Below are positions 8,176 through 62,760 of a stretch of 62,760 nt of DNA, piece by piece. Each line of letters begins with the position of its first letter. Position 1 is the stretch's first letter. Source of the stretch: Boseongicola sp. GTDB lineage: Bacteria; Pseudomonadota; Alphaproteobacteria; Rhodobacterales; Rhodobacteraceae. Both the position numbers and the translations under genes were made by a program. Below the pieces are notes generated by a model. It was not told the origin of the DNA, made no database searches, and worked only from the letters and a program-made list of their open reading frames with translations. Location of the stretch: assembly GCA_028824715.1 (NCBI GenBank), contig JAPPCV010000064.1:1-62760 (forward strand), written 5' to 3'.

Positions 8176-8528
8176 TGCTCGTCAAGCGATTTGCCGATGC
8201 CGAACCCTATGATGCCCCGAACCACTGGGGCGTCACCGGGCTCAGGCTTCAGGGCTTCGAGGACGGGGGCCCTGAAAACCAGTGGGTCGGCCTGTCCCAG
8301 TTCCTGCCGGGGGGCGGAGCCGGACCGGATTCAACGCCGTTCGAGAAGGTCTACGTCGTGCTCGAAGGCGAGATGACCGTGATCGTCGACGGCGAGGAAA
8401 CGGTGTTGAAGCCCATGGACAGTTGCAGGATCGCGCCGGACGAGGTTCGCAAGATCGAGAACCGCAGCAACCATGTCTGCAAGATGATTGTCGTGATCCC
8501 GTATCCCGACGGCAAGAGGCCGGAGTAG
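8175..8528 (+). CDS. Small cupin-domain protein
   Basis: A 117-residue single-domain cupin: FEKVYVVLEGEMTVIVDGEE forms the first half of the beta barrel and the APDEVRKIENRSN segment the second. The metal-binding histidines of classical cupins are mostly replaced, so metal binding is doubtful. The start ATG overlaps the cyclase stop codon by one base, which implies coupled translation. In such operons cupins act as isomerases, as decarboxylases or as ligand-binding helpers. No specific reaction can be assigned. Confidence 0.82.
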   Translation: MLVKRFADAEPYDAPNHWGVTGLRLQGFEDGGPENQWVGLSQFLPGGGAGPDSTPFEKVYVVLEGEMTVIVDGEETVLKPMDSCRIAPDEVRKIENRSNHVCKMIVVIPYPDGKRPE

Positions 8529-52024: not shown

Positions 52025-53356
52025 ATGCAGGTCACCGAAACGCTGAACGAGGGTTTCAAGCGCGGCTACAGGATCACCGTGACCGCGAGCGAACTGGACG
52101 AAAAGGTCAACGGCAAGCTGGCCGAGGCGGCTCCCGAGGTCCAGATGAAGGGCTTCCGCAAGGGGAAGGTCCCGACTGCCCTGCTCAAGAAGCAGTTCGG
52201 AAAGCGCCTCTTGGGCGAGGCGATGCAGGAAAGCGTTGATGCAGCTGTCTCCGAGCACTTCAAGGACTCCGGCGAAAAGCCGGCCATGGAGCCGAAGGTC
52301 GAGATGCAGAACCAGGACTGGAAGGAAGGCGATGACGTCGAACTGGCCCTGACTTACGAGACGTTGCCCGAGATTCCGGAAGTCGACTTTGCCAGCTTGG
52401 AGCTGGAAAGGTTCGTCGTCAATGCAGACGAGGCTGCGGTCAACGAGGTTCTCGATGACTTCGCGTCACGTTCGCCTGACTACGTTGATCGCCCCAAGAG
52501 CTCGGAGGCCGCAGAGGGCGACCAGCTGATTGTCGACTTCACCTGCATGGTCGATGGCGAGGTCCTGCAAGAAGCTGCCGGGTCCAGTGTTCCCTTGGTT
52601 CTTGGCCTGGATCAGTTTGTCCCTGGTTTCGAGGCGCCGCTTTTCGGGGCAGTGGAAGGCGAGACCAGGCGAGTCGAGGTCAAGTTTCCTCAAGACCACG
52701 CAAGCAAGAAGCTGGCGGGCAAGCTCGCCACGTTCCAGGTGACCGTCACGGCGGTTCAGGAGCCCAGGCCTGCGGCGATCGACGACGAACTGGCCAGGAG
52801 ATTCGGCGCGGAGGATCTCGAGGGGCTCAAGGAAAGGGCAGCGGAAGCCATCAAGAACGAGGGCGAGTCCGTTGCGCGATCGATCTTGAAGCGCACGCTC
52901 TTCGATGAGCTCGACAAGGTCCTGGAATTTGACCTGCCGCCTTCGCTTGTCGAACGGGAAGCCGAGCAGATCGCGTATCAGCTCTGGCGCGATGAGCATG
53001 GGGATGATGAACACCCCGACGACGAGGAAATTGAGCCTGACGACGAGCACAACCGTTTGGCCGAGCGTAGGGTGCGCCTCGGACTTCTCCTGTCTGACCT
53101 TGGCGAACGGTCAGATGTCACGGTCACGGATGCCGAGATGAACCAGGCCGTCATCAGCCAGGCAAGGGCCATTCCGGGGCGGGAGCGGGACTACTTTGAC
53201 CTCGTGCAGAAATCACCGGTCTTGCGCAACCAGATCCATGCTTCGATTTTCGAGGAAAAGCTCGTGGACTACGTCTTCGACATGGTGACGATCAAGGAAA
53301 GGAAAGTCTCCAAGGACGAGCTGCTCAAGGCGTTTGAAGCGCTGGACGACGAGTGA
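52025..53356 (+). CDS. tig: Trigger factor
   Basis: A 443-residue ribosome-associated chaperone and peptidyl-prolyl isomerase. The N-terminal ribosome-binding domain has the GFRKGKVP loop (contact to L23), the FKBP-type PPIase domain spans about 160-245 (DQLIVDFTCMVDGEVLQEAAGS; LVLGLDQFVPGFEAPLFGAVEGE), and the helical C-terminal domain follows. ATG 52025 (MQVTETLNEGFKRGY) is preferred to 52019, because AGAGGA is correctly spaced and this is the conserved start. It is not followed by clpP here; the next gene, pxpA, is convergent. Confidence 0.96.
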   Translation: MQVTETLNEGFKRGYRITVTASELDEKVNGKLAEAAPEVQMKGFRKGKVPTALLKKQFGKRLLGEAMQESVDAAVSEHFKDSGEKPAMEPKVEMQNQDWKEGDDVELALTYETLPEIPEVDFASLELERFVVNADEAAVNEVLDDFASRSPDYVDRPKSSEAAEGDQLIVDFTCMVDGEVLQEAAGSSVPLVLGLDQFVPGFEAPLFGAVEGETRRVEVKFPQDHASKKLAGKLATFQVTVTAVQEPRPAAIDDELARRFGAEDLEGLKERAAEAIKNEGESVARSILKRTLFDELDKVLEFDLPPSLVEREAEQIAYQLWRDEHGDDEHPDDEEIEPDDEHNRLAERRVRLGLLLSDLGERSDVTVTDAEMNQAVISQARAIPGRERDYFDLVQKSPVLRNQIHASIFEEKLVDYVFDMVTIKERKVSKDELLKAFEALDDE

Positions 53357-53417
53357 GGCAGCAGCCTTTGCCGGGGCCGATTGCCGAGCCCTGCGGCGAC
53401 AGCAAGACAGGAAGAAG

Positions 53418-53440
53418 GTCGCCGTCAGGCAAGCGGCGAC
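53418..53440. terminator. Possible shared hairpin between convergent tig and pxpA
   Basis: Arms GTCGCCG (53418-53424) and CGGCGAC (53434-53440) with a 9-nt loop overlap the pxpA stop codon and lie 62 bp beyond the tig stop. It may act as a bidirectional terminator, but no T-run accompanies it on either side. Confidence 0.3.
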
Positions 53441-54216
53441 CCTGCAAACAGTTCCAGCCTGATTCCCGCCGATTCAACACCTTCCCGCACGCGCGTGGCT
53501 AGCGCGACGGCTTCGGCGCTGTCACCGTGGACGCAGACTGTGTCGATGCGTGTCGGCAGCTTCTGACCGTCGCAGGTCATGATCGCGCTCTCCCGGACCA
53601 TTCCTGCTACGCGTCGCGCAGCTTCGTCACCGTCGCTGATCATCGCTCCCGGCAAGCGGCGGTCGACAAGGGTGCCGTCGGGATTGTAGGCCCGGTCGGC
53701 GAAAACTTCGCCTGCCCAATTGCAACCCAGTTCGCGGCAAACCTCCTCCATCCGTGTCGCCGCCAGTCCGACTATGATGATGTCAGGTGCCACATCGAGT
53801 GCTGCTTCGTAGCAGGCGCGGGCCATGTTTGCGTCGACGCATGCCATGTTCGAGAGGGCGCCGTGAAGCTTCATGTGCCGAACCTCTCCGCCAGCGGCAT
53901 GCGCCATCGCCTGTGCGGCCCCGACCTGATAGCGGATCATGTTGGCCAAAGTAGTCTGCGGCACCTGCATCTGGCGCCGACCGAATCCCTGGAGATCCGG
54001 AAAGCCGGGATGGGCACCGATGCCGACGCCGTTCTCGACGGCGGTTCGCATGGTTGCGGCCATGGTGTCAGCATCACCCGCATGGAACCCGCAAGCGACA
54101 TTGGCGGAAGTCACGACTCGCAGGAGATTGGCGTCATCGCCCATTTTCCACGGGCCGAAGCCTTCCCCCATGTCAGAGTTCAAGTCTACGCTGAGAGCCA
54201 TGGGGTCAGATGACAT
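53425..54216 (-). CDS. pxpA: 5-oxoprolinase subunit PxpA (LamB/YcsF family)
   Basis: An about 260-residue LamB/YcsF protein: VDLNSDMGEGFGPW at the N-terminus, SANVACGFHAGDADTM, GAHPGFPDLQGFGRR and RHMKLHGALSNMA are the family's ordered motifs. PxpA works with PxpB and PxpC in ATP-dependent 5-oxoproline opening; pxpB/C are not in the window. ATG 54216 or 54201 could start it; the frame before that is intergenic. It diverges from the ClC gene by about 200 bp. Confidence 0.9.
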   Translation of the reverse strand: MSSDPMALSVDLNSDMGEGFGPWKMGDDANLLRVVTSANVACGFHAGDADTMAATMRTAVENGVGIGAHPGFPDLQGFGRRQMQVPQTTLANMIRYQVGAAQAMAHAAGGEVRHMKLHGALSNMACVDANMARACYEAALDVAPDIIIVGLAATRMEEVCRELGCNWAGEVFADRAYNPDGTLVDRRLPGAMISDGDEAARRVAGMVRESAIMTCDGQKLPTRIDTVCVHGDSAEAVALATRVREGVESAGIRLELFAGSPLA

Positions 54217-54414
54217 CCTGCACGGGAGGACCGCAAGGCCCTGATTGACAAATCTTGGCGCGAGTTCGAATTTTTCCGATCCGCCCTTTCCGTTGCAAAA
54301 TCCCTGCCTTAGGAATGTTTCCATTCGCAAGCGGCAGGATTGCGGATCCTTGCCTGGGTGCCATCGGGCGGTACAGGGCATCGTTGCGTTCTCGCCCGCG
54401 TAGCCAAGTGTCTT

Positions 54415-56103
54415 ATGGACGCGCCCAGACCAAGCACAATCAGGGATCTATTCGCGCGTCTTGCGGTCAATGCCCGCGGAGCGTTGCACGTCATAAGGCA
54501 AAACGGCCCGGGGCAGGTCCAGTTCTGGTTCATTGCGCTTCTGGTCGGAACTGCCGCAGGCGGTGCCGCCGTACTGTTTCGTCTCGGCATCAGCCTGCTG
54601 CAGACGACGCTCTATGGCACGGAAGATCCAAGGCTCATGCATTCCTTTGCCGAGACTCTCCCGTGGTACATGATTGTCCTGATCCCCGTGTGCGGTGGAT
54701 TGGTTGTCGGCATCATTCTGGACCGGTTCACGGCTGACGGCAGGGCCAGGTCCGTCGCGGAGGTGATCGAGGGCGCCGCGCTTCACAATGGCCGTGTCGA
54801 GACGAAGGAAGGCATGGCTTCGGCGGCGGCGTCCTTGATCACGCTCGGGTCAGGGGGCTCGTCCGGTCGAGAGGGTCCGGTCGTGCATCTCGCGGCGGTC
54901 CTGTCATCCTGGGTGCTGGACCGAATCAATGCCGACGGCATCACCGGTCGCGACCTCATGGGTTGCGCTGTTGCCGCAGCCGTCTCGGCGTCGTTCAACG
55001 CGCCAATTGCAGGCGCGCTGTTCGCGCTGGAAGTGGTTCTTCGGCACTTTGCCGTGCATGCATTCGCGCCAATCGTGATCGCAAGCGCGGCAGGGACGGT
55101 GATTTCGCGCCTTGCATTCGGAGACGTCACCGAATTCGTCCTGATCGAGGAGGGAATCCTGGCATTCTACGTGGAACTTCCGGCATTCCTGCTTCTCGGA
55201 TTGCTGTCCGGGCTGATTGCGGTTGTGATGATGCGCTCGATCTTTCTTGCGGATGACTTCGGCAACCACACGTGCAAGCGCATCGGCATTCCTCGCTTCA
55301 TTCGCCCGGCGGTTGCCGGATTGCTGCTAGGCGTCCTGGCACTCGGCTTTCCGCACATTATCGGGGTGGGCTACGAGACCACGTCGGCCGCCTTGACCGG
55401 CCAGATCCTGTGGCACGAAGCCGTCGTGTTTTGCGCCGTCAAGGTGGCCGCGGTCGCGATCACCATGGGCGGGCGGATGGGCGGCGGCATATTTTCGCCT
55501 TCGATCATGGTAGGCGCCTTGTTGGGCCTTGCCTTCGGGCTGACGGCGACAGCGACCTTTCCGAACGTGTCCGGGTCCGAAACGTTGTATGCGCTAGCGG
55601 GGATGGGCGCGGTCGCGGCGGCGGTTCTGGGCGCGCCGATTTCGACGACGCTCATCGTGTTTGAACTGACCGGCGACTGGCAGACCGGGCTCGCCGTCAT
55701 GGTCGCGGTCTCGATGTCCACCGCAGTTGCCTCGCGCCTTGTCGACCGGTCGTTCTTTCTCACGCAGCTTGAGCGACGTGACGTGCACCTGGCCAAGGGG
55801 CCGCAGGGTTACCTGCTGTCGCTTTGCGGCGTTGCGACCTTGATGCGGAGACCTGGGGATCCCGGGGCCGCGTCGGAAGAGGCGGTCTGGGCCGCCATAG
55901 CGGATGGCGTGTGGGTCGACGTCGACGGAACTCTTGAGCAGGCAATGCCGGTCTTCGAAAGGACCGGGCTGCCATTCCTGCCCGTGCTCAGCTTTGGCGG
56001 GGAGGGGAAGCCGCCCAAGGTCCACGGGGCACTGTTTCATGTTGACGCTCTTCACGCCTTCAATCGCGCGCTGGCATCCACGGCAGAGGAGGAGCACAGC
56101 TAG
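54415..56103 (+). CDS. ClC-type chloride channel or H+/Cl- antiporter
   Basis: A 562-residue membrane protein with about ten or more hydrophobic segments. The anion filter is GSGGS (145-149) followed by GREGP (151-155) with the gating glutamate at 153, and the third signature GGGIFSPSIM is present. Retention of Glu153 is compatible with either exchange or gated-channel activity. After the last helix a soluble C-terminus (~490-562) could be a single, poorly matched CBS-like domain. ATG 54415 (MDAPRPSTIRD) is chosen as the first plausible start; the frame opens at 54340 without a ribosome site. Confidence 0.9.
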   Translation: MDAPRPSTIRDLFARLAVNARGALHVIRQNGPGQVQFWFIALLVGTAAGGAAVLFRLGISLLQTTLYGTEDPRLMHSFAETLPWYMIVLIPVCGGLVVGIILDRFTADGRARSVAEVIEGAALHNGRVETKEGMASAAASLITLGSGGSSGREGPVVHLAAVLSSWVLDRINADGITGRDLMGCAVAAAVSASFNAPIAGALFALEVVLRHFAVHAFAPIVIASAAGTVISRLAFGDVTEFVLIEEGILAFYVELPAFLLLGLLSGLIAVVMMRSIFLADDFGNHTCKRIGIPRFIRPAVAGLLLGVLALGFPHIIGVGYETTSAALTGQILWHEAVVFCAVKVAAVAITMGGRMGGGIFSPSIMVGALLGLAFGLTATATFPNVSGSETLYALAGMGAVAAAVLGAPISTTLIVFELTGDWQTGLAVMVAVSMSTAVASRLVDRSFFLTQLERRDVHLAKGPQGYLLSLCGVATLMRRPGDPGAASEEAVWAAIADGVWVDVDGTLEQAMPVFERTGLPFLPVLSFGGEGKPPKVHGALFHVDALHAFNRALASTAEEEHS

Positions 56104-56286
56104 GGACGTCGTTGTGGGTGAACCTTTACCAAGATCGTCGAGCGATGACATGATTGCTGGTGGATAGCGCGCAAGCGACACACATTGGGTCAGGTTTGAG
56201 CACCTGGATCTGGTTCCTTGGACGTCACTTCCAAAGTCGAGGGCGCTCCCGAGCCTTTCTGCACATGCAATGCCGATATCGGCTCT

Positions 56287-56641
56287 TCATGAAAGGTTGA
56301 CGAGACCCCAGCCAGTCAGCGCAAGGACGAAGCCTGCAGCTACGGTCAGGACCATGTTCCAGTCTTGCCAAGGTCCGGAGAAGCTTTGCCAAGCGTCGCG
56401 CGCGGCTGCGGTGTCGAGCGGCACTGACAGCAGGGCCAGATCCTCGTTCAATGGCACATTGACCATGAACGTCGGAAGCATGGCACCCAACACATAAAGG
56501 ATGCAGGCAAGGGCGAGGCAGATGGCAGCCTTCGGTTGGGTGCTTCTCGATGCGACCATCGCGGCACGCCAGCACGGGAGGCGTGCCAAAAAATGCCGGT
56601 GCGAAGAGCCAATTGCGCACGCTTTCGTTCATGGCTTGCAT
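56287..56641 (-). pseudogene. DUF1772 (anthrone-oxygenase-like) membrane protein, frameshifted
   Basis: Two minus-strand frames join into one DUF1772 protein. The first (from 56641) gives MQAMNESVRNWLFAPAFFGTP, and the second (through 56287) gives AAMVASRSTQPKAAI, VLGAMLPTFMVNVPLNEDLA and the C-terminal WNMVLTVAAGFVLALTGWG. The shift lies at about 56560-56570. About 35 N-terminal residues are absent, cut off where the IS-like element begins at about 56724. It is a dead gene, probably disrupted by that insertion. Confidence 0.75.
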
Positions 56642-56723
56642 TGCTCGGCGCGTGTTTTGACGAATTTGGCGGATTTCGGCCCGGGATATGCCTTGATTTC
56701 AAGGACCCGACCCCCAGAAGTCG

Positions 56724-56739
56724 CGTGTAGTGCCGACCT
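56724..56739 (+). repeat. 16-nt direct repeat bracketing the broken IS, left copy
   Basis: CGTGTAGTGCCGACCT, repeated exactly at 58807-58822 in the same orientation, 2,083 bp apart. It lies 41 bp before the transposase fragment start, where an IS left end would be. Sixteen bases is longer than typical target duplications of this IS family. Confidence 0.65.
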
Positions 56740-56780
56740 GTCCCCCTGATCCGGAGGTCGCGACGGCGAAGTCTCCGCCC

Positions 56781-57005
56781 ATGTTCGTGCGTCGCAAGAA
56801 GCGATTCAAGGACGGCAAGGAGCACCGCTCCTGGAGCGTGGTGGAGAACTGCCGCGTGCGCGGCGGCCAGGTCGTCCAGCGTCATATCCTGTATCTCGGC
56901 GAGATCAACGACAGCCAGCCCGCGGCGTGGTGCCGCGCGATCGAGGTGCTGGAAGGCCGGTCGGGATCGCGTCAGGTGGCGCTGTTTCCCGAGGACCGTC
57001 AATAG
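56781..57005 (+). pseudogene. IS1634-family transposase, N-terminal fragment
   Basis: Seventy-four residues beginning MFVRRKKRFKDGKEHRSW and continuing VVQRHILYLGEINDSQ, then VALFPEDRQ and a TAG stop at 57003-57005. This is the start of IS1634/IS4-like transposases, which normally run to roughly 550-600 residues. The catalytic DDE core is missing. The last ~60 codons appear 1.57 kb downstream (58577-58777), so the gene has been split, not merely truncated. Confidence 0.8.
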
Positions 57006-57010
57006 GCAGG

Positions 57011-57103
57011 CAGAATGTTGAGCTCAACATTCTGAACAGGCCCTTATTGGCCGTGCTGCGCACAACAAATTAGGGCCTATTCACTATCTCGTGCACGAGA
57101 TAG
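57011..57103. repeat. Cluster of perfect palindromes after the transposase fragment
   Basis: Two perfect palindromes lie 50 bp apart: 24 bp at 57011-57034 (arms CAGAATGTTGAG) and 20 bp at 57084-57103 (half-site CTATCTCGTG). Between them AGGCCCT (57038-57044) and AGGGCCT (57072-57078) form another inverted repeat. A further 9-bp pair ATGGGAACC/GGTTCCCAT lies at 57135-57143 and 57205-57213. No T-runs follow. They mark the junction between transposase remnant and cargo gene. Confidence 0.7.
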
Positions 57104-57511
57104 GCGGCACCCTCCAGGAGTGGGGCAGAGAATTATGGGAACCTGATCAGGGCAATAGGCGTGTCATGATCGGCACTTGAGACTACGGCTTCCCATAGAA
57201 ATTCGGTTCCCATTATATCCGACGGGGCCTGTTTGGCCTCGATCCCGCGCCGATCTGCCTCCGAAACGGATTCTCTCGTCGCGCTTGTGACTGTTTTTTT
57301 CCCGTGCGATCCCCATGCGCGCAGTCTGGGAGATGCCGGGGCAGGCTTGCCGCCAGCATACAGAAATGCCAGTAAACGCAACAAGCGTCTGCCTGGCATG
57401 TGAACTTGCCGGAATGACCGGCAGCGCCGCGCACGGGTTGAAGGCGGCGGCGCATCTGGGCACCAGGGAGGCAAGATGTCCGGAATCTGGCGCCAGCCAG
57501 GGAGAGCCGCC
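57104..57511. other. Non-coding junction before the lipoprotein gene
   Basis: These 408 bp lead from the palindrome cluster to the lipoprotein start. They contain the ATGGGAACC/GGTTCCCAT inverted repeat and a run of seven T at about 57291. No convincing gene; minus-strand frames are shadows of the lipoprotein or unrecognised. Confidence 0.45.
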
Positions 57512-58498
57512 ATGAAAGCCATCTCGAGCCTCATATTCGCAATGCTGGCGCTGGCCGCTTGCACTGCCGACAAGGAGCCGGGCGGCACTCTTGAACTTGA
57601 GAGAAATACGGAGTTCGATGGCGCGGCGCTTCGGTTCTTCGTGAAACTGGACGACGGAGCAGAGGCTTCCGTCCACACGGACGATGACCTGGTCGGGAAC
57701 ACGCGTGCCCCGACGCCCATGCGCGGCCATAGGGCGCATGCCCTGACGTTCTTCAAGGAAACGGAGGCGGGAACGTCGGTGGCCCATGCCCTTCTGAGCT
57801 GGGATCCGGAAAACCCCGCCGACTACCTGGCGTTCGGCTGGTGGACCCAGTTCCCCGATCAGCATGCCCCTGATCTTTCGTTCGCGGAGTCGGAGCAGTA
57901 CGCGATCATCGACGGTCCGGAAATCGACCATGGCATCGTGCCGCAGGTGCCGGTCGACGGGGCGGCCTCCTACACGGGCCAGGCCGGCGGGCTCTACGCC
58001 TACACGTTCGGAAGCGACTGGGGCGAGGACGAGGGCGAATTCGTGATCGACGAGTACCAGGGCGTGCTCACCCTGACCGCTGACTTCGCGGACGGCACGG
58101 TCAGGGGCTGCATCGGCTGCGTTGGCGACCTCGTCACGAGGCGTGCGCATTTCGGCGCGTTCCTGGGACGGGAGCCGATAGACGCGCAGGGCCTGGCCAG
58201 GGACTACGAGCTTCACCTCGCCAGCGCGATCCTGAGGGAAGACGGCCTGTTTGAGCGCGACAGGGTGACGGTGAGGCACCCGGAACGGACTATCACCTCA
58301 TTCGAGGGAGGCTGGGGCGGCGCCCTGTCCAGCCGCCAGGACACCGACGGGAACCCCCGTCTGGTCGCCGGATTCAGCAGCGTCGGGTTCGAGGAGAGCG
58401 ACGGAAGCGAAGGTGATTTCTGGGGTTCGCTCCTGGGCCTTAGCGACACCTTCCTGCAGGACGGGCAATCCTCCCCGCTTCCCGACGGCGACCACTGA
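57512..58498 (+). CDS. Transferrin-binding-protein-like surface lipoprotein (cargo of broken IS)
   Basis: A 328-residue lipoprotein: signal MKAISSLIFAMLALAAC with lipobox LAAC (Cys17). The mature part is Gly/Asp/Phe-rich beta structure. ASYTGQAGGLYAYTFG followed by GVLTLTADFADGTVRGCIGC matches the handle-barrel pattern of TbpB-like proteins of alphaproteobacteria, and the C-terminus has FEGGWGGALSS...RLVAGFSSVGFEE. AGGGAGAG precedes ATG 57512. The gene is complete with good codon use, lying between the N- and C-terminal pieces of one transposase. Its ligand is unknown; surface display would need a Slam-type or Lol route not seen here. Confidence 0.75.
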   Translation: MKAISSLIFAMLALAACTADKEPGGTLELERNTEFDGAALRFFVKLDDGAEASVHTDDDLVGNTRAPTPMRGHRAHALTFFKETEAGTSVAHALLSWDPENPADYLAFGWWTQFPDQHAPDLSFAESEQYAIIDGPEIDHGIVPQVPVDGAASYTGQAGGLYAYTFGSDWGEDEGEFVIDEYQGVLTLTADFADGTVRGCIGCVGDLVTRRAHFGAFLGREPIDAQGLARDYELHLASAILREDGLFERDRVTVRHPERTITSFEGGWGGALSSRQDTDGNPRLVAGFSSVGFEESDGSEGDFWGSLLGLSDTFLQDGQSSPLPDGDH

Positions 58499-58576
58499 CG
58501 GCGCTCCCTTCCCGGCGAACGGTCATGGCTGTTCGCGCGAACGGGTGTCAATCCGCCTTCCGGAGTCTCACCCAGT

Positions 58577-58777
58577 TTGTCGCGTTCTAGACTGACGCCG
58601 CGCGCCATCATCGAGGCGTTCGGCACGATCCAGATGGTGGACGTGCATCTGCCCACAACCGACGGCCGGCGTCTTGTCCTTCCGCGCTGCACCCAGCCAT
58701 GGAAGGAGCACGAGCTTCTCCTGCACCAGCTCGGCATGACCCTGCCAGCACAAGGCGCGTCGCGGCTCTCTTCGTGA
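58577..58777 (+). pseudogene. IS1634-family transposase, C-terminal fragment
   Basis: About 66 codons: RLTPRAIIEAFGTIQMVDVHLPTTDGR followed by LVLPRCTQPWKEHELLLHQLGMTLPAQ and a TGA stop at 58775-58777. This is the conserved tail of the IS1634-type transposase whose head lies at 56781-57005. It has no start of its own. The distance between head and tail matches the missing middle only roughly, because the lipoprotein gene has replaced the core. Confidence 0.75.
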
Positions 58778-58806
58778 CGGTGTGCCACCCGCTGTCCGTC
58801 GGCCGC

Positions 58807-58822
58807 CGTGTAGTGCCGACCT
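58807..58822 (+). repeat. 16-nt direct repeat bracketing the broken IS, right copy
   Basis: An exact copy of 56724-56739 in the same orientation, 29 bp after the transposase C-terminal stop. It overlaps a small hairpin CCGACC/GGTCGG (58815-58832). A terminal repeat of an IS would be inverted, so this is either a tandem duplication scar or the left end of a second, decayed copy. Confidence 0.6.
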
Positions 58823-59714
58823 TTGAGGGTCGGATTCAGGAATATCAATGCGTTACGGACCTCATGACCCGCGAGTTGCGGAAGTCGGGTTAGAGTTGAC
58901 GGGAACGATTGGTCTCTTGGCTTCACAGCTATCAGACCATGGCGGGTGAGGCCATCCTGGAGACCGCCCTGGCCGTTCGGTCCCGGTCGTTGCTGTCTGC
59001 ACGACGTGCCGCTTTGGACGATCACCGGTGTTCCCGACGGTTGCTCCGGATAAGGTCTAGAATCCACCGGCTTCAATGGGTTGCCCGGGCCATTACTGGC
59101 TGCAAGGTTACAGTGGGCATTCTTGCCTGTGGTGTTGGGGTTCCGGACTCACGCGCGGCAGCCCTGATTCTCAACAGGATGTCAACACGATGTGGTCAAC
59201 GCAGGTGTCCAACCGGGGCCCATCTGCCCGTTCCTGAGAGTGGATCGGCATGGGCAGATTCACATGGAGACTCGTGGCAAGGGAAAAGCGGGACCAAGCG
59301 GGCTCTGTAGGATCCTCGCAGTGGCTTGAGCGCTGAAACTTCCAGTTTCAGCGCCGTTCAACGGCATTGCGTTTGGGTCTCCGGGGCTTCGTCAGCCCCG
59401 AATTGCACGACTGTCGGTTGTCCTTCGGTCAGCGGGTGAGACCTTGACGCAGCCTTGATCCAAGGACGCCACCTGAAGTGCCAGTTGCGGTCGAGCGTCA
59501 GGGAGGAGCCAGGTTGGGCCGGCGTTGACGGGCATGAGTCGAGGCAGGTTGCGCCCGGAAGGCGGCATCAACTTGACAGCGACATGGTCGCGCAGTAGCG
59601 AACCCGCAAGTTCCGTCTGCTGCCCGACGCTGCGCGCGCTCGGACGCAGGCAGAGGCTACGGTGGAGCCGAGGCGGAAGTTCGCGGCCATGGGCAATTGA
59701 CTTCGGAGAACGTG
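58823..59714. other. Gene-free region between the two lipoprotein genes
   Basis: These 892 bp hold no gene I can support; all frames are short or unrecognised. Two strong hairpins lie at 59330-59354 and 59382-59400. The sequence has lower coding quality than either flank, with several TAG/TGA codons per frame. It is probably degraded mobile DNA. Confidence 0.5.
59330..59400. repeat. Two adjacent strong hairpins
   Basis: Hairpin 1 has 11-bp perfect arms GCGCTGAAACT (59330-59340) and AGTTTCAGCGC (59344-59354) with a 3-nt loop. Hairpin 2 has 7-bp arms CGGGGCT (59382-59388) and AGCCCCG (59394-59400) with a 5-nt loop. No T-run follows either. They may be ends of a lost element or transcription-blocking structures. 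Confidence 0.55.
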
Positions 59715-60662
59715 ATGCGAGGCAATTGCCGGTCGGCGCCTCTTGCAAGTCTTGGGTTGGCGGCGTCCTTGCTTGCGGGCTGCGGCGGCAACGGGATGTC
59801 CGGTTCCGTCCCGACTGCGGAGCAGGTCAGGCAGGCGACGCTGACACGCGTGCAATCCGCCACGGTCGTGCTTGCCAGCGATCAGCACGTGTTCCGGTAC
59901 GACGGCCGCTCGTCTCGCACCTTTTCGGCGTGCGACGGAACGGTCTGCGGCGTGAGTCAGGCTTCCGAGGGCTTGCAGGCTGCCGTTGCCCGCGCTTCCG
60001 CCGATCCCCGGCTCGACTTCGGAAGCAGCCACTTCGCGGCGCGGCTCGAGGATTCCCTGGAGCTCAAGCCGGAGACCCGGGCCGTGAACGGCGTCACGCT
60101 CGTCGAAGGTTTCGGGCTGCGCTCCGGGGACCGGGCATTCCGCGCGAAGTTCTACGGTGGCTGGCTCGAAGATGGCGCGTTCTTCGTCAACGAGACCACC
60201 TTGACGGTCCGTGACGAGAGCGGCCAGCCGGACGGGCTGGGCACCGTCTTCGATGCCAGCGCCTTCGGCATGGCGAACGACGCGGCGCCTGCGCCCCTGC
60301 AAGGCATGTCGGCAACCTGGACGGGCATGATGATCGGTGCGGACGTCAGCGACACCGTGACCCGCGGCCAGTTTCTCCGTGGCGAAGCCAGGCTTGTCAT
60401 CGACGATCTCGCCAGTCCTGACGTCGATGTCGTCTTCAGCGATCTCCGGGACCTGGAAACGGGCGCAAGGCTGGCCGGACGGACGATCGCGCCATGGCAG
60501 GACATTCCACTCGCCGGCGGTTCGTTCGGCAGCAAACCGGCCGGGAGCGACGACTATGTCCAGGGCCGTTTCGTCGGAGAGGATCACGCTGGGGTCGTGG
60601 GCATCTTCGAACGCAGCAACGTCGTGGGCTCCTTTGGCGGCAATCGGCAGCCTGACAGCTAG
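59715..60662 (+). CDS. Second transferrin-binding-protein-like lipoprotein
   Basis: A 315-residue lipoprotein with signal [23 protein letters not shown] (lipobox LAGC, Cys23) and Cys-Gly-Gly-Asn-Gly following. The mature part has beta strands and a C-terminal barrel motif GRFVGEDHAGVVGIFERSNVVGSFGG, as in TbpB/factor-H-binding-type proteins (GxFxG...VxGxF). ATG 59715 is chosen for GGAG 8 nt upstream and for a normal signal peptide; a TTG at 59697 is possible. It is a distant relative of 57512-58498, sharing architecture and not close sequence. The ligand is unknown. Confidence 0.75.
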   Translation: MRGNCRSAPLASLGLAASLLAGCGGNGMSGSVPTAEQVRQATLTRVQSATVVLASDQHVFRYDGRSSRTFSACDGTVCGVSQASEGLQAAVARASADPRLDFGSSHFAARLEDSLELKPETRAVNGVTLVEGFGLRSGDRAFRAKFYGGWLEDGAFFVNETTLTVRDESGQPDGLGTVFDASAFGMANDAAPAPLQGMSATWTGMMIGADVSDTVTRGQFLRGEARLVIDDLASPDVDVVFSDLRDLETGARLAGRTIAPWQDIPLAGGSFGSKPAGSDDYVQGRFVGEDHAGVVGIFERSNVVGSFGGNRQPDS

Positions 60663-62521: not shown

Positions 62522-62760
62522 TCAGGCATCGGCAGGACATTCCGTGGAGAGTCCCGCCTCCACGTCGACGGTCGAATCCCGTGCAATCCGGAATTCAGCC
62601 CGAATCCCGTTCGCGCGGCAAAGCGCGATTCCGCCGGCGGAGTCCCAGATGCCGGCGCAGCCGATCTCCAGGTATCCCGACAGCCGGCCGAGCGCGACGA
62701 AGAGAAGGGAGACCGCGCAGGACCCGAGCGACACGATGTTGAATCCCCGGGATTCGATCC
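62522..62760 (-). CDS. Inositol monophosphatase family protein, partial (C-terminal part)
   Basis: The reading frame runs out of the window at 62760, so the N-terminal ~190 residues are missing. The visible ~78 residues read RGFNIVSLGSCAVSLLFVALGRLSGYLEIG, then AGIWDSAGGIALCRANG, the second metal motif WDxAGG of the FIG/IMPase superfamily. Members dephosphorylate inositol or sugar phosphates with magnesium. Substrate is open. The C-terminus ends TVDVEAGLSTECPADA. Confidence 0.85.
   Translation of the reverse strand, partial: IESRGFNIVSLGSCAVSLLFVALGRLSGYLEIGCAGIWDSAGGIALCRANGIRAEFRIARDSTVDVEAGLSTECPADA

What the first reader, a model, noticed from the sequence alone, without database searches (positions are those of the whole stretch)
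56724..58822. IS1634-like transposase split around a complete surface-lipoprotein gene, with 16-bp direct repeats and palindromes at the joints
Seen: transposase codons 1-74 at 56781-57005, the last ~66 codons at 58577-58777, and between them an intact TbpB-like lipoprotein gene with its own ribosome site. The set is enclosed by exact 16-nt direct repeats and contains two perfect palindromes at the left joint. Known: IS1634-family transposases are about 550-600 residues, so the catalytic core is gone and replaced. Inference: a non-autonomous unit in which element ends carry a surface-protein cargo and are mobilised in trans. Alternatively, it could be a one-off insertion and deletion scar.
Basis: partly seen in the sequence, partly recalled or inferred. 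Interest (0 to 1): 0.8.

Follow-up and report, generated by a model that had tools for sequence, protein, structure and literature searches.

The report
IS1634 relic and its recognition repeats
The split transposase is the wreck of an ordinary jumping gene, not a gene-carrying transposon, but its two 16-letter repeats turn out to be a widespread paired signal whose letters change together with one or two amino acids of the transposase, which suggests that the enzyme reads them.

Summary
The exact 16-nt repeats, two palindromes, an N- and a C-terminal transposase piece and an open lipoprotein-like gene between them are present. The cargo-element reading does not hold. The pieces are the two ends of a 2,018-bp IS1634 element, one intact copy of which lies on contig C177. 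Element homology runs beyond the repeats (56644-58892), and 17 bp of the left end are missing. In a sister genome the lipoprotein gene and 3' piece lie together without the 5' piece; in three relatives the chromosome left of the 5' piece is unbroken. The palindromes and 57115-57216 are other, multi-copy repeats. The locus is a mosaic scar. Cargo-free IS1634 miniatures occur at other sites.

The 16-nt repeats are the better find. Of 79 related transposase loci, 72 carry TGTRGTGNNGACCT-like sites in direct orientation on both sides of the transposase gene. The variable letters track transposase residue 23 (K/R with CC, N with GA or TA/GA, mostly T with AA); residue 50 tracks positions 4-7. These are by far the strongest of 575 columns, and 11 of 11 held-out loci fit. 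I infer that the repeats are transposase binding sites read by the N-terminal beta-sheet domain. No binding was tested.

The parts
56287..56641 (-). truncated anthrone-oxygenase-like (PF08592) gene; chromosome left of the element, unbroken in three relatives
   Evidence: Pfam run on the G003 homologue
56644..56998 (+). 5' piece of the IS1634 element (element nt 18-372; outer 17 nt of the left terminal repeat missing)
   Evidence: 94% to C177
56724..56739 (+). left copy of the subterminal direct repeat (SDR)
56781..57005 (+). transposase codons 1-74 then a stop (GTG start at 56730 also possible)
57011..57034 (.). perfect 24-nt palindrome; not part of the IS
   Evidence: also on C174; related match on C86
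57084..57116 (.). second palindrome (perfect at 57085-57102), REP-like, multi-copy in the genus
57115..57216 (+). repeat of about 100 nt found across the genus; on C36 two copies in opposite orientation bracket two phage-integrase genes
57221..59350 (+). module (lipoprotein gene + IS 3' piece + 458 nt) shared with G005:C106 at 96%; left edge shared with G006:C143
57512..58498 (+). open lipoprotein-like gene, 328 aa (ATG at 57476 also possible)
58592..58892 (+). 3' piece of the IS1634 element (element nt 1718-2018)
   Evidence: 96% to C177
58577..58777 (+). transposase C-terminal piece
58807..58822 (+). right copy of the subterminal direct repeat (SDR)
58872..58892 (-). right terminal inverted repeat of the element, complete
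62706..62760 (.). 55-nt overlap with the start of contig C30; marks the likely continuation of the locus

Best explanation
The locus is a non-functional mosaic. It holds the two ends of a 2,018-bp IS1634-family element lying on either side of an unrelated lipoprotein-like gene. The gene and the 3' end were already joined in a module shared with a sister genome. The 5' end, joined to a truncated chromosomal gene, was most likely added in this lineage by a separate rearrangement within a block of about 14.5 kb. The 16-nt repeats are neither target duplications nor borders of a unit. They are the element's own subterminal direct repeats (SDRs), one just upstream of the transposase gene and one around its end. 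Most likely mechanism (inferred): in intact elements the N-terminal beta-sheet domain of the transposase binds both SDRs, residue 23 reading core positions 8-9 and residue 50 positions 4-7. The left copy may also act as an operator. Deletion between the two copies explains the 182-184 bp miniatures seen in relatives.
For: Intact copy and boundaries. Separate history of the two pieces. SDR pair in 72 of 79 loci; core identical in both copies in 54 of 72 (5,000 permutations: mean 17.6, maximum 31). Tree-corrected co-change of the two copies (quick tree, supported branches): CC against not-CC 8 of 8 independent pairs, p 0.0078; position 9 C against not-C 7 of 7, p 0.016. Residue 23: K/R in 21 of 21 CC/CC elements, N in 9 of 9 GA/GA or TA/GA elements, T in 11 of 11 AA/CA elements. 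Mutual information over 575 columns: residue 23 z 7.8 (left) and 7.2 (right), next best 2.8 and 2.9; residue 50 z 8.1 and 9.3 for positions 4-7, next best 3.2 and 3.2. Held-out loci 11 of 11 fit. Model: strands 2-10, 13-25 and 31-40 with block pLDDT 90-93; residue 23 is model position 6 and residue 50 is position 33.
Against: Binding was not measured. The two copies are not always alike: 18 of 72 differ in the core and 41 of 72 somewhere in the 14-mer. Residue 23 against position 9 on the tree rests on 6 supported pairs, p 0.031-0.0625. The residue 50 link rests largely on small groups (3 elements with K50, 3 with H50). Several held-out loci are near kin of scored ones. Of 14 distant IS1634 members only one shows a TGTAGT-type direct repeat clearly beyond chance. 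Foldseek found no solved relative of the domain at E <= 0.001. The 5' piece could in principle have been lost from G005 rather than gained here.
Confidence: 0.75

Rival explanations
1. A mobile insertion cassette: one IS1634 copy whose transposase middle was replaced by the lipoprotein gene, mobilised in trans by the intact C177 copy.
For: Head and tail are in order and orientation, similarly diverged from C177 (94% and 96%); an intact transposase exists in the genome; IS1634 miniatures exist at unrelated sites.
Against: Left terminal repeat truncated at 56644; homology with G005 runs 458 nt past the right end and lacks the head; no second copy among the matches listed for 8 genomes.
Confidence: 0.08
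2. Relic of a composite transposon: two direct IS1634 copies once flanked the gene and each later lost its inner part.
For: Composite transposons of this family are known (Tn6097 with two convergent ISPfe2 copies, PMC3281130, passages).
Against: G005 has only the right copy and shares the flank beyond it; left outer end missing; no target duplication can be tested with that end gone.
Confidence: 0.12
3. The SDRs are regulatory or RNA-level signals (operator, translation or termination signal) and not part of transposition; the link to residue 23 is shared ancestry.
For: The left copy begins 54-59 nt before codon 18 in 69 of 72 elements; an Acidiphilium member was assayed in E. coli from a vector with cloned left and right inverted repeats (PMC4549789, passages).
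Against: No conserved RNA fold in any of six alifold runs; residue 23 stands out from 574 other columns and changes repeatedly on the tree (11 changes); the A. multivorum plasmid copy examined shows no clear SDR, so that assay may not speak to this subgroup.
Confidence: 0.22

Closest known systems
IS1634 family (ISPfe2, ISAzo6, IS1549, IS1634)
   Same: Transposase family (NF033559, DDE_Tnp_1), size about 2 kb, terminal inverted repeats.
   Different: The window copy has no catalytic core and lost 17 bp of one end; no target duplication found at C177 or four miniatures. Paired direct SDRs are not mentioned in the passages read of PMC2266710, PMC3281130, PMC4549789 or PMC11448079.
Mobile insertion cassettes (MIC231 type)
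   Same: IS ends on both sides of a foreign gene, no transposase.
   Different: Left end incomplete; not seen elsewhere; relatives show the parts with separate histories. MICs known here from a search listing and one passage.
MITEs derived from IS elements
   Same: G000:C72 and C102 units (318 and 313 bp) and the G001:C141 and G003:C181 units (184 and 182 bp) have both IS1634 ends and no transposase.
   Different: These are elsewhere, not the window locus; no target duplications found.
Arm-type or AP2-like three-stranded beta-sheet DNA-binding domains (recalled comparison)
   Same: The predicted N-terminal domain is three strands plus a helix, and arm sites of integrases are direct repeats (recalled).
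   Different: Foldseek gave no match at E <= 0.001, so the resemblance is untested.

Membership tests
IS1634 family | Transposase scoring above the family cut-off | tested here: met
   C177 copy 299.3 bits, cut-off 100; the window pieces alone score nothing but align at 86% and 96%
IS1634 family | DDE catalytic domain | tested here: not met
   Present in C177 (PF01609, residues 231-524); residues 93-537 are absent from the window locus, which is therefore filed as a relic, not a working member
IS1634 family | Terminal inverted repeats at both ends | tested here: not met
   Right end complete, left end lacks 17 nt in the window; both present in C177
IS1634 family | 5-6 bp target duplication | tested here: not met
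   None found at C177 or four miniatures; not testable in the window, left end lost
Mobile insertion cassette | Both IS ends intact around a cargo gene | tested here: not met
Mobile insertion cassette | Unit found at more than one site or with an empty site | tested here: not met
   Gene searched in 147 genomes: matches in 8, all same genus; of three contexts compared only the window has the head
Composite transposon | Two IS copies with functional outer ends | tested here: not met
   Left outer end truncated
IS1634-derived MITE (for the C72 and C102 units) | Short, both element ends, no transposase, more than one site | tested here: met
   318 and 313 bp, 84.6% alike, element-only homology
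IS1634-derived MITE (for the C72 and C102 units) | Target duplication | tested here: not met
   None found
Slam-dependent surface lipoprotein | Above-cutoff family score | tested here: not met
   16.8 bits, cut-off 80
Slam-dependent surface lipoprotein | Surface exposure through a Slam translocon | not tested
   No Slam gene was sought; lipobox judged by eye

The most novel reading that the evidence does not exclude
A large subgroup of IS1634 elements carries a second recognition signal inside the terminal repeats: a pair of 14-nt sites in direct, not inverted, orientation on either side of the transposase gene, read by an N-terminal three-stranded sheet with a simple code (residue 23 for core positions 8-9, residue 50 for positions 4-7). 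Because the sites point the same way, they could tell the left end from the right and let the transposase repress its own gene. The same pair makes the element prone to losing its gene by deletion, leaving miniatures.
Probability: 0.6. Interest if true: 0.7.

Novelty: new variant of a known kind. Interest (0 to 1): 0.55.

Why it matters
The locus itself warns that a split transposase around a gene need not be a cargo transposon; relatives settled it. The repeats matter more. PMC4549789 (passage) calls IS1634 a poorly characterised family, and the covariation gives a residue-level hypothesis of how its transposases recognise DNA that one gel-shift experiment can test. It would also give a sequence mark for annotating this subgroup, its ends and its miniatures in draft genomes.

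Tried and rejected
Target-duplication reading of the 16-nt repeats: rejected, since they lie inside the intact C177 copy and in related elements. Long target duplications (reported for IS1549 and IS1634 in PMC2266710, passages): none at C177 or four miniatures. RNA structure around the SDRs: none, energy 0 in six alifold runs. Head-tail divergence as a test of one or two source copies: 94% against 96%, not decisive. A repeated tail junction in G003:C86, G001:C200 and G001:C51 looked like another cargo unit but is one collinear locus. The deleted half of the anthrone-oxygenase locus was not found in this genome (no positive control in that call; the longer query covers the same stretch and matched it in G004 and partly in G005, not in G002). 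The module's third context (G006) gave no clean empty site. SDR across the whole family: rejected as a general feature. Fold comparison of the N-terminal domain: no significant match. A larger hold-out set was sought in viral contigs; two scans gave one locus.

Full report
WHAT IS THERE. The window is contig C110 of a 5.24-Mb draft genome in 181 contigs, G000. The same genome holds an intact element on C177 (114212-116229, minus strand). It is 2,018 bp, has a 611-aa transposase that NCBIfam names IS1634 (299.3 bits, cut-off 100) with a DDE domain, and has imperfect terminal repeats (TAACCCGACTTCAGAAACTCG at the left, the complement of CGAGTTGCGGAAATCGGGCTA at the right). Against it, the window has nt 18-372 at 56644-56998 (94%) and nt 1718-2018 at 58592-58892 (96%). 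Both 16-nt repeats lie inside the element: the left at the alternative transposase start (GTG 56730), the right, in the intact copy, around the stop codon. Other traces in this genome include fragments and contig-end pieces on C36, C49, C114, C119, C120 and C136.

WHY IT IS NOT A CARGO UNIT. Three results separate the two pieces. (a) G005:C106 is collinear with window 57221-59350 at 96%: the lipoprotein gene, the same junction to the IS 3' piece, the right terminal repeat and 458 nt beyond it. It has no 5' piece in the 9.8 kb fetched upstream, and none is listed anywhere in G005 (38 of 114 candidates scored). The sequence upstream in G005 ends in a stretch that G000 carries on C160, beside phage-integrase genes. 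G006:C143 has the gene with a third upstream context. (b) Chromosome 53002-56644 is found in relatives: G003 collinear throughout at 88%, G005 and G004 over parts. In all three the sequence runs on unbroken past the point where, in the window, the IS 5' piece begins without its first 17 nt and an anthrone-oxygenase-like gene is cut. (c) The last 55 nt of the window equal the first 55 nt of C30. G005:C40 is collinear across that join at 95-96%, and C30 rejoins relatives' synteny at 8390, at an M24 peptidase gene. So G000 has about 14.5 kb (14,452 nt if the join holds) between the two chromosome blocks where G005 has 480 nt. The block combines sequences that lie on different contigs in G005 (C106 and C40). 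The palindromes match other contigs. 57115-57216 is a repeat with matches in all 8 genomes of the genus searched; its copies on C36 bracket two phage-integrase genes. Shown: these arrangements. Inferred: the order of events. I cannot exclude that G005 lost a 5' piece.

NON-AUTONOMOUS DERIVATIVES ELSEWHERE. G000:C72 and C102 carry 318- and 313-bp units with both IS1634 ends and no cargo, 84.6% alike and sharing nothing outside the unit. G001:C141 and G003:C181 carry 184- and 182-bp units that share about 190 bp, so also lie at unrelated sites. In these two the head and tail matches overlap by 15 nt at the 16-nt repeat, as expected of a deletion between the two copies. No target duplication was found for any of the four.

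THE REPEATS. I looked at IS1634 transposase loci whose record titles name many phyla (the best 80 of 287). A first look at 23 of these 80 found a shared direct word of 12-17 nt in 19, of the form TGTAGTG..GACCT in nearly all; a run over all 80 followed. I then scored a 14-nt pattern with two free core positions. Of 81 loci given (80 plus C177), 79 had both transposase ends; L091 and L139 were dropped. Of the 79, 72 carry the site on both sides (at least 12 of 14). The 7 misses lack one copy, 3 of them with under 100 nt of flank on that side (L084, L126, L133). Internal control windows passed in 18 of 395. The pattern was taken from these loci, so the 72 describe the set; the two free positions were not scored. 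Outside the 14-mer little is conserved. The core is the same in both copies of an element in 54 of 72 (5,000 permutations: mean 17.6, maximum 31), the whole 14-mer in 31 of 72 (mean 7.2, maximum 16). Exceptions include 11 elements with AA left and CA right and 4 with TA left and GA right. On a quick tree, the copies switch together in 8 of 8 independent pairs for CC against not-CC, and 7 of 7 for C at position 9.

A CODE. I then asked which transposase columns follow the repeat. Residue 23 (C177 numbering) is K or R in 21 of 21 CC/CC elements, N in 9 of 9 GA/GA or TA/GA elements, T in 11 of 11 AA/CA elements, T, S, I, Q or V in 17 AA/AA elements, and S, H, T or C in 10 CA/CA elements; four single elements have other pairings. 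By normalised mutual information over 575 columns it is first for both copies (z 7.8 and 7.2; next 2.8 and 2.9). Residue 50 is first for positions 4-7 (z 8.1 and 9.3; next 3.2 and 3.2). A rule K/R for CC, N for GA, T for AA fits at least one copy in 52 of 54 elements with those residues (2,000 shuffles: mean 17.8, maximum 29). On a tree built without columns 15-45, residue 23 and position 9 change together in 5.9 of 6 supported pairs on average (p 0.031-0.0625). Residue 23 lies more than 50 nt downstream of the left copy, so the link is not shared coding. Before looking at their residues I wrote predictions for nine held-out loci. All nine fit, as did L091 and L139, 11 of 11 in all (the four other loci in that call are distant plasmid copies for which the rule predicts nothing). 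Several held-out loci are near kin of scored elements, so this is support, not independent proof.

STRUCTURE AND MECHANISM. AlphaFold of the first 81 residues gives three strands and a helix (mean pLDDT 81.9; 90-93 over residues 1-50). The full-length model repeats the three strands (block pLDDT 76-80 over residues 1-40) but not the helix. Residues 23 and 50 fall on strands 1 and 3 (model positions 6 and 33). Foldseek found no solved relative at E <= 0.001. My reading: the N-terminal sheet binds the two SDRs, and variation in the site and in the reading residue is coupled. That the sites are direct, and that the left one keeps a nearly fixed distance to the gene (start 54-59 nt before codon 18 in 69 of 72; right copy from -4 to +47 around codon 600), suggests an added role in control. 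Binding, roles and order of events are inferred; the arrangement, covariation and distribution are shown.

LIMITS AND LITERATURE. The repeat is a subgroup feature. Among 14 distant plasmid members (about 23-30% identity in the listing), Cereibacter, Rhodovulum, Sulfitobacter and Mesorhizobium copies show TGTAGT- or GTGGTAACA-type words at matching places, but only the Sulfitobacter one is clearly beyond chance (longest shared word reached in 0 of 200 shuffles; 39, 12 and 11 of 200 for Cereibacter, Rhodovulum and Mesorhizobium). No held paper contains the two motif strings searched. A search with the phrase 'subterminal direct repeats' showed no use of it in the 12 papers listed of 35. The passages read in PMC2266710, PMC3281130, PMC4549789 and PMC11448079 do not describe the pair. 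ISfinder and most subscription papers were not available, among them the original IS1549 and IS1634 papers, so novelty is provisional.

Noticed in passing
window 59697-60662 and L009 621-2132, 5327-6730: Further lipoprotein-like genes (named by eye) lie near the relic and on both sides of the intact C177 element; the genus has many paralogues of the window gene.
   Followed up: partly
L148 3859-8100 (G005), with relatives on G000 C45, C101, C160: Tandem phage-integrase genes (two confirmed by Pfam) near the lipoprotein module; homology to G000:C160 ends at the same point as window 57221. It resembles a recombinase-trio element (recalled name); termini were not tested.
   Followed up: partly
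L017 56-3757 (G000:C36): Two copies in opposite orientation of the window repeat 57115-57216 bracket two phage-integrase genes; the repeat has matches in all 8 genomes searched.
   Followed up: partly
window 59330-59354: Inverted repeat with 11-nt arms (GCGCTGAAACT / AGTTTCAGCGC) at the right end of the stretch shared with G005.
   Followed up: no
L206 1-8390 (G000:C30): Likely continuation of the window: ABC transporter, phosphodiesterase-like and ROK-like genes (named by eye); its first 4.7 kb are 96% identical to G005:C40.
   Followed up: partly
G000:C49:1-120 and C114:1-99: Two contigs end inside near-identical IS1634 ends (96% and 98%), suggesting at least one more, unassembled copy.
   Followed up: no
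L220 1050-2734 (Persicobacter plasmid): A distant IS1634 member has a different 15-nt direct word on both sides of its transposase (0 of 200 shuffles).
   Followed up: no
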